Source of the DNA: Rhodopseudomonas palustris
GTDB lineage: Bacteria > Pseudomonadota > Alphaproteobacteria > Rhizobiales > Xanthobacteraceae
Length of the DNA stretch: 64,000 bases
NCBI GenBank assembly: GCA_016215605.1
Contig: JACRJB010000068.1
Coordinates: 154,270 to 218,269 of the forward strand
Reading direction: 5' to 3'
The notes beneath the pieces are model-generated. The model worked only from the letters and a program-made list of their open reading frames with translations, was not told the origin of the DNA and searched no databases. Positions within the stretch are counted from its first letter, which is position 1. The number at the start of each line of letters is the position of its first letter. Below are positions 46,589 to 48,442 of this stretch, piece by piece. Both the position numbers and the translations under genes were made by a program.

Positions 46589-48442
46589 GTGACCAAGCCG
46601 TTGCAACCGCCGACGCGCGAGCGGCGGCTGAATGCGCTCAGCGCCTATCTCGGCGATGTCGCGGCGCTGATCGCCGAATTCGAGGACGGCCCGCCGGTGA
46701 CGCGGATCCGCACCTTCTCGCAGGTCGCGGTGGACGACGTCTCCGCCGCGCTGCGGGTTCTGATTGAGGTCGACGGGCTGGGTATCGTCGTCCACGGCGC
46801 GCGCGGCTGCGCCGGGGCGCTGGCCTCGGCGCGTGTCGACCGTCCGTGGGCGGTGACGAATCTCGATCAGCGCGACACTATTCTTGGCGCCGACGGCGCG
46901 CTCGCGCGGACGCTGCGGCAGCTTCATCACCGCTACCGGCCATGGGCGATCATGGTGGTGGCGACGCCGGTGGTGGCGATCAACAATGACGACATTCAAT
47001 CCGTCGCCGAAGAACTGAGCGACGAACTCGGCATTCCGATCATCGAACTGCGGACCGACGGATTTCGCTCCCGCGTGGCGGCGACCGGCTTCGATGTCGC
47101 CGCTCAGGCCATCGCTGCACTAGTGCCGCCGGGCCATTCACGCCGGCGCGACCTGGTCAATCTGTTGGCGTTCGAACGCGGGCCCGGGCTCGCCGGCATT
47201 GTGCAGGCGGTCGAAAGCCTCGGCCTCGAGGTCAACGTGTTTCCGGTCGGTGCGGGAGCAAAGGAGTTTGCGAAGGCCGCACAGGCCGCCGTCAGCGTTG
47301 CGGTGTTCGAGGACGAGACCGATGCATTGCGGCGCGAGCTCGACCGGCTGCACGGCGTGCCGTTCCTACGGCTGCCGCCGCCGATCGGGATCGTAGCGAC
47401 CCAGCACCTCGTCGCGGCGATCGCCGCCGCCACCGAACGGCCAGCGCCGCCATCGGCAGCCGCCGCGGCAGACGTTCAGATCCTCAACGGCCGCAGTATC
47501 GTCGTCGCGCTGCCGCCGTCGCACGCCTTTGCCGTCGCCGAATTGGTCGATCGGTTCGGCGGCGAGCTCGTCGGCCTCAGCGTCGACTGGATCGACAGCC
47601 TGCATCTCGGTGGAGCCAACGATTATCTCGTCAAGGGCGAATTCGACGCCGTGCTGCTCGAGCGGTCGATGCGATACGCCGCGCGAAACGCCGATGCTCT
47701 GGCGGAACTGGATCGCCGCCTGCTGGAGAGCAGGGCCACGGCCCGTCAGCTGATGGAGCAGACCAAGCGCCGCGCCGCCGCGGAGGCGGACGTGCTCCAG
47801 GTGCTGAGGCAGACGATGACGGAGCAGGAGGCCGAGCGTCAGCGGATCGCGCGGGAGATGCACGACAATCTCGGTCAATCGGTCACCCTGGTCCAACTCG
47901 GTCTCGATTCGATCGTCCGCACCGCGCCGGCGCATAGCGAGATTGCCGACAAGGCGGCGTCGTTGAAACGCATCACGCACGACATGAGCAGGAGCCTGCA
48001 TCGGATCGCCTGGGAGGTCCGTCCGACCGCGCTCGATGCGCTCGGTCTGGAAGACGCGATCGGCCAACTCGTCGCCGAGTGGGAGCCGCACTGCAGCCTC
48101 ACCTTCGATCTCCACTTCGGGATCGGCGACCGAAGGTTGCCGCCGGATGTCGAAAGCGCGCTGTATCGCGTGATCCAGGAAGGCATCACCAACGTCGTGC
48201 GCCATGCGCATGCGACCCGCGTCGGCGTCATCCTGGAGACGAGGGGCAGCGAACTGATCTGCATCGTTGAAGACGACGGATGCGGCGTACCGGAGGTCGA
48301 GGCCGGAGCCGCCGGAAAATCGTCGCGGCGCCTCGGCTTGCTCGGCATGCGCGAGCGCCTCGCGCTCGTCAACGGAACGGTGGAGCTGGAGTCTCATCCC
48401 GAGAAAGGAACGGCACTGTTCGCGCGGGTGCCGCTGGGCTGA
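46589..48442 (+). CDS. Nitrogenase component-1-like domain fused to NarL-type histidine kinase
   Basis: GTG start 1 nt after the NifH-like stop; N-terminal segment aligns with MarD/MarK landmarks (IVVHGARGCAG; NNDDIQSVAEELSDELGIPIIELRTDGFRS); C-terminal AREMHDNLGQSV H-box and VIQEGITNVVRHAHA...EDDGCGVPE...RLGLLGMRERLALVNGTVELES...GTALFARVPL ATPase. Confidence 0.8.
   Translation: MTKPLQPPTRERRLNALSAYLGDVAALIAEFEDGPPVTRIRTFSQVAVDDVSAALRVLIEVDGLGIVVHGARGCAGALASARVDRPWAVTNLDQRDTILGADGALARTLRQLHHRYRPWAIMVVATPVVAINNDDIQSVAEELSDELGIPIIELRTDGFRSRVAATGFDVAAQAIAALVPPGHSRRRDLVNLLAFERGPGLAGIVQAVESLGLEVNVFPVGAGAKEFAKAAQAAVSVAVFEDETDALRRELDRLHGVPFLRLPPPIGIVATQHLVAAIAAATERPAPPSAAAAADVQILNGRSIVVALPPSHAFAVAELVDRFGGELVGLSVDWIDSLHLGGANDYLVKGEFDAVLLERSMRYAARNADALAELDRRLLESRATARQLMEQTKRRAAAEADVLQVLRQTMTEQEAERQRIAREMHDNLGQSVTLVQLGLDSIVRTAPAHSEIADKAASLKRITHDMSRSLHRIAWEVRPTALDALGLEDAIGQLVAEWEPHCSLTFDLHFGIGDRRLPPDVESALYRVIQEGITNVVRHAHATRVGVILETRGSELICIVEDDGCGVPEVEAGAAGKSSRRLGLLGMRERLALVNGTVELESHPEKGTALFARVPLG

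What the first reader, a model, noticed from the sequence alone, without database searches (positions are those of the whole stretch)
46589..47860. The kinase-fused nitrogenase-like domain has lost nearly all cluster ligands but keeps one cysteine (Cys74)
Aligned by eye to MarD/MarK: HSPIGCG becomes HGARGCAG (Cys74 kept). ATSCASGIIGDD becomes ATPVVAINNDD (P-cluster Cys lost). VSFCYTLGTYLATALEQEFGV becomes VSVAVFEDETDALRRELDRLHGV (cofactor Cys lost). Cys74 is the only cysteine before the H-box, so it cannot hold a normal P-cluster or FeMo-type cofactor. A homodimer could still bridge a small FeS cluster using Cys74 from each subunit, or the domain may bind a ligand instead.
Basis: partly seen in the sequence, partly recalled or inferred. 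Interest (0 to 1): 0.85.

Follow-up and report, generated by a model that had tools for sequence, protein, structure and literature searches.

The report
Broken isethionate-reductase gene fused to kinase
In this purple bacterium a DNA rearrangement has joined the front of an enzyme gene for using the sulfur compound isethionate (isrD) to the back of a light/redox-signalling kinase gene (lhfE) and removed the enzyme's partner gene, so the 'nitrogenase-like sensor kinase' is most likely a recent accidental chimera, and its single remaining cysteine is the normal, already published state of that enzyme family.

Summary
In detail: window 46589-48442 encodes a 617-aa protein whose nitrogenase-like part keeps only Cys74 of the cluster ligands. 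But the ligand loss is not linked to the kinase. The N-terminal part is IsrD, the D subunit of isethionate reductase (isrBHDK), preceded here by isrB and isrH. A single conserved Cys74 is the published state of IsrD (Morimoto 2024, PMC11423573); it is present in all 84 sequences I aligned. In IsrDK the other three cysteines come from IsrK. In 79 of 80 further loci isrK directly follows isrD (the last is cut by its contig end), and none has a kinase there. The window genome alone has isrD cut at residue 342 and no isrK. It is joined in frame to the last 275 codons of lhfE (Rpa3018), the redox-sensing kinase of the LH4 antenna pathway, whose other parts (BphP2/P3, LhfD, LhfA, LhfE receiver domain) are absent from the genome. 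The three other cysteines are LhfE's 262, 318 and 325. Best reading: a recent illegitimate-recombination chimera that disables isethionate reduction, not an evolved FeS-sensing kinase. No codon-level decay is detectable, so a working chimeric kinase cannot be excluded.

The parts
44456..45673 (+). isrB, radical SAM protein
   Evidence: 95% identical to IsrB of Rhodopseudomonas sp. BR0M22 (L070); L070 IsrB 63% to R. capsulatus SP108; PF04055 and NF045502
45712..46587 (+). isrH, NifH-like reductase
   Evidence: 95% identical to IsrH of L070; L070 IsrH 80% to R. capsulatus; PF00142
46589..47614 (+). 5' part of isrD (residues 1-342 of about 453)
   Evidence: 86% identical to IsrD of L070 over 1-342, then identity stops
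46808..46810 (+). codon of Cys74, equivalent of NifD Cys88 / MarD Cys91
   Evidence: numbering agrees with published IsrD Cys74
47495..47614 (+). remaining half of IsrD domain III (b1-a1-b2 and start of a2)
   Evidence: predicted structure of intact IsrD, pLDDT 87; junction lies in helix 338-350 of that model
47606..47618 (+). junction isrD | lhfE, in frame, with at most a few bases of microhomology
   Evidence: DNA alignment with G006/G008 isrD on the left and G001/G012 lhfE on the right
47612..48442 (+). 3' part of lhfE (Rpa3018 family), residues about 102 to the end, native stop
   Evidence: 89-92% identical to P0080/P0083, 376-aa REC-HisKA_3-HATPase_c proteins
47834..48034 (+). HisKA_3 domain with His425 (LhfE His185)
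48092..48094 (+). codon of Cys502 = LhfE Cys262, the redox cysteine
   Evidence: constant offset of 240 residues; P0084 has Cys 141/262/318/325 and His185 as published for CGA009 LhfE
48152..48436 (+). HATPase_c domain
   Evidence: catalytic motifs invariant in alignment A3

Best explanation
The gene is a lineage-specific chimera made by illegitimate recombination. Its first 342 codons are the 5' three quarters of isrD, the catalytic-component D subunit of isethionate reductase; its last 275 codons are the 3' three quarters of lhfE, the redox-sensing histidine kinase of the LH4 antenna pathway. Shown: the two source genes are separate in all relatives; the join is in frame; the isrD tail, all of isrK, the LhfE receiver domain and the rest of the lhf operon are absent from the genome. 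Inferred: isethionate reductase is inactive here, because isrDK is required in R. capsulatus. Inferred: the IsrD remnant cannot build its proposed [4Fe-4S] cluster, because three of four cysteine ligands come from IsrK. Inferred: the kinase core, though intact in sequence (His425, ATP-binding motifs, redox cysteine Cys502), has lost its receiver domain and its known partners, so the protein is most likely a non-functional or unemployed remnant made from the isr operon.
For: Residues 1-342 match only stand-alone ~450-aa proteins, with identity ending exactly at the junction. Residues 342-617 match 376-aa REC-kinases, again with identity starting at the junction. isrBHD order and synteny with five relatives reach the junction and stop at 47609-47614. 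isrK follows isrD directly in 79 of 80 genome loci (the exception is cut by its contig end) and none has the kinase. IsrK, the IsrD tail, the LhfE N-terminus and the BphP2/P3 cluster are absent from the genome; LhfA too, only the 74% paralogue is there. In a complete relative genome (G010) isrD and lhfE lie 736 kb apart. The flanks of the lhf locus are split between contigs C67 and C74. R. capsulatus SP108 IsrD has Cys74 as its sole cysteine and IsrK has the three N-terminal cysteines, matching the paper. The junction falls inside a helix of domain III.
Against: No decay is visible. On the window branch isrD has 25 synonymous to 8 non-synonymous codon changes and the kinase 35 to 3, like the relatives' branches. 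There is no internal stop or frameshift and no family-invariant residue is lost. This fits a very recent event but also a gene under selection. Only one genome of the species was available, so the age is unknown.
Confidence: 0.78

Rival explanations
1. A working chimeric histidine kinase: the isr promoter now drives an LhfE kinase core that lacks its receiver domain and is controlled by redox (Cys502) and perhaps by the IsrD module, rewiring sulfur and redox signalling.
For: Frame open, kinase motifs and redox cysteine intact, all family-invariant IsrD residues before the junction kept, low non-synonymous rate on the window branch.
Against: Junction cuts two domains in half; cognate regulator LhfA, LhfD and BphP2/P3 absent; no other genome has the architecture; low predicted confidence around the junction (weak because the kinase part had no alignment).
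Confidence: 0.1
2. Assembly artefact: isrD and lhfE were wrongly joined and the real genome has both genes intact.
For: Draft assembly of 78 contigs; the join has only a few bases of homology; the stretch just downstream (48.5-51.1 kb) is a mosaic of pieces far apart in relatives.
Against: The missing pieces (isrD tail, isrK, LhfE receiver, lhf operon) are nowhere in an assembly rated 100% complete; assemblers usually misjoin at long repeats, not at a few bases; the protein database also lists the identical 617-aa protein (P0002) on a contig of 2,691 bases, not the 218-kb contig, though its origin is not shown.
Confidence: 0.08
3. One reading: a homodimeric nitrogenase-like sensor in which Cys74 of each subunit bridges a small FeS cluster that controls the kinase.
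For: Cys74 conserved in 84 of 84 sequences; kinases of this class dimerise (general knowledge).
Against: Conservation of Cys74 is explained by its proposed role with IsrK in the enzyme (PMC11423573); fusion found in one genome only; the known redox cysteine of the kinase is elsewhere (Cys502).
Confidence: 0.02
4. The IsrD remnant still pairs with a MarK subunit from the same genome (two MarK-type proteins, 35% identical to IsrK) and keeps some reductase function.
For: Two mar-type DK pairs lie in the same window and MarK carries three cluster cysteines (PMC12552129).
Against: 35% identity only; IsrD lost about 110 C-terminal residues including the WHIKxEV tail conserved in the family.
Confidence: 0.02

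Closest known systems
IsrD of isethionate reductase IsrBHDK, Rhodobacter capsulatus (Morimoto et al. 2024, PMC11423573)
   Same: Same gene order isrB-isrH-isrD, single Cys74 at the NifD Cys88 position, Arg and Pro in place of the other two P-cluster cysteines, no cofactor Cys; 43% identical to R. capsulatus SP108 IsrD over the shared part.
   Different: Here isrD ends at residue 342, isrK is missing and a kinase is attached.
LhfE (Rpa3018), redox-sensing REC-histidine kinase of the LH4 pathway, Rhodopseudomonas palustris (PMC6879726)
   Same: Kinase core 73% identical to the CGA009-type LhfE (P0084) and 92% to P0083; His185, Cys262, Cys318, Cys325 all kept as His425, Cys502, Cys558, Cys565.
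   Different: Receiver domain lost except its last strand and helix; lhf operon partners absent; placed behind isrH.
MarD of methylthio-alkane reductase (PMC12552129; PDB 9fmg, 9d9u)
   Same: Closest solved structure of IsrD by sequence profile (E 1e-79) and by fold (TM 0.79).
   Different: MarD keeps three P-cluster cysteines and the cofactor ligands Cys270/His429; IsrD keeps one cysteine.

Membership tests
IsrD (isethionate reductase D subunit) | Neighbours isrB (radical SAM) and isrH upstream | tested here: met
   Window 44456-46587, 95% to L070; L070 63% and 80% to R. capsulatus SP108
IsrD (isethionate reductase D subunit) | Only Cys74 of the three P-cluster cysteines; no FeMoco cysteine | tested here: met
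   published pattern
IsrD (isethionate reductase D subunit) | Full-length protein of about 450 aa with C-terminal WHIKxEV tail | tested here: not met
   cut at residue 342
IsrD (isethionate reductase D subunit) | Partner isrK with three cysteines directly downstream | tested here: not met
   absent from window and genome
IsrD (isethionate reductase D subunit) | Needed for anaerobic growth on isethionate | not testable with these tools
   needs culture
LhfE (REC-HisKA_3 kinase) | HisKA_3 and HATPase_c with conserved His185 and redox Cys262 | tested here: met
   His425, Cys502
LhfE (REC-HisKA_3 kinase) | N-terminal receiver domain | tested here: not met
   residues 1-101 of LhfE missing
LhfE (REC-HisKA_3 kinase) | Operon with lhfA, bphP2, bphP3, lhfD | tested here: not met
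Evolved nitrogenase-domain sensor kinase | Architecture conserved in more than one lineage | tested here: not met
   1 of 101 genomes; 0 of 80 loci; none other among the 120 best kinase relatives

The most novel reading that the evidence does not exclude
The chimera is expressed from the isr promoter as an active, redox-sensitive kinase without its receiver domain, giving this strain a new link between sulfur status and a two-component output; a gene fusion caught at birth.
Probability: 0.08. Interest if true: 0.6.

Novelty: new variant of a known kind. Interest (0 to 1): 0.3.

Why it matters
It corrects an attractive reading: the ligand-poor nitrogenase-like domain is a known enzyme subunit, not a sensor invented for a kinase. 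It also gives a sharp, cheap prediction (this strain cannot reduce isethionate although it keeps isrB, isrH and a ssu-type sulfonate transporter and monooxygenase set), and an example of how one recombination can break two pathways and still leave a clean open frame that domain annotation reports as a new architecture.

Tried and rejected
Kinase-fused nitrogenase domain as a conserved architecture: rejected, found once only. Missing pieces elsewhere in the genome: none. isrD tail or isrK relic in the window: only weak matches to the marK gene. Relaxed selection as a sign of decay: not seen. tRNA or repeats as a cause of the junction: the only tRNA call is at 16.9 kb, and there is no long repeat at the junction. 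Structure of the whole fusion: low confidence in the kinase part because no alignment rows covered it, so not used as strong evidence; two mixed alignments were discarded as misaligned. A search for papers on a nitrogenase-like domain fused to a histidine kinase gave nothing relevant.

Full report
What was claimed and what is there. The frame from GTG 46589 to the stop at 48442 gives a 617-residue protein with a nitrogenase component 1 domain at 54-332 and a HisKA_3/HATPase_c kinase at 416-616.

The N-terminal part is IsrD. Its relatives are stand-alone proteins of about 450 residues. In the same genus, genomes G006 and G008 (Rhodopseudomonas sp. BR0M22 and R. infernalis HC1 by matching loci L070 and L069) have it at 86% and 84% identity over residues 1-344. 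Upstream of it in the window lie a radical SAM gene (44456-45673) and a NifH-like gene (45712-46587). This is the isrBHD order of isethionate reductase, described in Rhodobacter capsulatus (PMC11423573). The orthologous locus of R. capsulatus SP108 (L140) has IsrB 63%, IsrH 80%, IsrD 42% and IsrK 46% identical to those of L070. Its IsrD has exactly one cysteine, Cys74, and its IsrK has three near the N-terminus that match the published Cys12, 37 and 99 allowing for one residue of start-codon choice.

The ligand pattern is therefore already known. The paper states that IsrD has only Cys74, corresponding to NifD Cys88, that the positions of NifD Cys62 and Cys154 are Arg and Pro/Ser, and that the FeMoco ligands Cys275 and His442 are absent. 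It proposes that Cys74 and the three IsrK cysteines hold a cluster such as [4Fe-4S]. I checked this on 84 IsrD sequences: Cys74 is present in all; in IsrK the three cysteines are present in all 80-81 sequences with a residue there. Arg41 and Pro127 are invariant too. A profile of IsrD finds MarD first among solved structures, with Cys74 aligned to the MarD HSPIGC cysteine, and a confident model of intact IsrD (pLDDT 87, pTM 0.88) has MarD as its best structural match (TM 0.79), followed by BchB.

The C-terminal part is LhfE. Residues 342-617 match 376-aa proteins with receiver, HisKA_3 and HATPase_c domains at 89-92%. In G001, G012 and G005 this gene is the last of a cluster: LuxR-type regulator, two bacteriophytochromes, small response regulator, REC-kinase. 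That is the lhfA-bphP2-bphP3-lhfD-lhfE (rpa3014-3018) cluster of R. palustris, where LhfE is a redox sensor acting through Cys262 and needs His185 (PMC6879726). P0084 has Cys 141, 262, 318, 325 and His185, as published; with a constant offset of 240 the fusion has the last three and the histidine as Cys502, 558, 565 and His425. So the other three cysteines of the fusion are explained as well.

The junction. DNA identity to isrD of G006 and G008 ends, and identity to lhfE of G001 and G012 begins, within a few bases at 47612. Synteny with the relatives' mar-ssu-isr region reaches 47.6 kb and stops there. In the model of intact IsrD the junction lies in the helix after the second strand of domain III, and on the other side only the last strand and helix of the receiver domain remain. 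Neither break is at a domain border. This is what random recombination gives, not what a selected domain fusion usually looks like (inference).

What was lost. The isrD tail and isrK are absent from the window and from the whole assembly, which is rated 100% complete. So are the LhfE receiver domain and BphP2/P3; the nearest LhfA is a 74% protein equal to the paralogue that G001 also has beside its true LhfA. The two flanks of the lhf locus of G012 map to different contigs, C67 and C74. Immediately downstream of the fusion the window is a mosaic of a DUF763 gene, a zinc dehydrogenase and a sugar ABC operon that lie far apart in relatives. So the region has been rearranged more than once.

How widespread. 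Among 101 genomes around the window's species only its own has the joined gene; G010 and G011 carry both genes separately, 736 kb apart in G010. Among 80 further loci from named genomes, isrK follows isrD in 79 and the last is cut by its contig end; none has the kinase. Among the 120 best-scoring relatives of the kinase part, no other has a nitrogenase domain.

Function. Enzyme: isrDK deletion abolishes anaerobic growth on isethionate in R. capsulatus (PMC11423573), so loss of isrK and of the IsrD tail should inactivate the enzyme here (inference). FeS: without IsrK three of four proposed ligands are gone. Kinase: the catalytic motifs and redox cysteine are intact, but its receiver and its known partners are gone. 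The codon changes on the window branch do not show decay: isrD 25 synonymous to 8 non-synonymous, kinase 35 to 3, isrB 30 to 6, isrH 25 to 2. The event is thus either very recent or the product is still useful; the data do not decide, and I put the working-kinase reading at about one in ten.

Verdict. The new element is the isrD-lhfE chimera itself, a lineage-specific fusion of modest interest.

Noticed in passing
window 19192-22284 and 35186-38233: Two mar-type D/K pairs in one window, the second with a NifB-like radical SAM gene (33331-34350) and a NifH-like gene; together with isr this makes three nitrogenase-like sulfur loci within 30 kb.
   Followed up: partly
window 38460-44007, minus strand: ssu-type set (two periplasmic binding proteins, permease, ATPase, luciferase-like monooxygenase, flavin reductase) divergent from isrB; the oxygen-dependent sulfonate route looks intact.
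   Followed up: partly
window 48486-56000: Mosaic downstream of the fusion: DUF763 gene, zinc dehydrogenase and sugar ABC operon come from places that are far apart in eight relatives.
   Followed up: partly
G000:C67:168653-171592: Bacteriophytochrome-kinase with a LuxR-type regulator (74% to LhfA) sits next to the genes that flank the lhf operon in G012, where lhf itself is missing.
   Followed up: no
window 16936-17025: tRNA-Arg call inside an ABC-transporter ATPase gene (16211-17359); probably a false positive.
   Followed up: no
L079, L080, L081 and other Clostridia loci: isrB is not always upstream of isrH; in several Firmicutes it lies downstream of isrK.
   Followed up: no
P0061: A Desulfuromonadales protein joins a NifH-like N-terminus to an IsrD-like C-terminus, another possible deletion chimera at an isr locus.
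   Followed up: no
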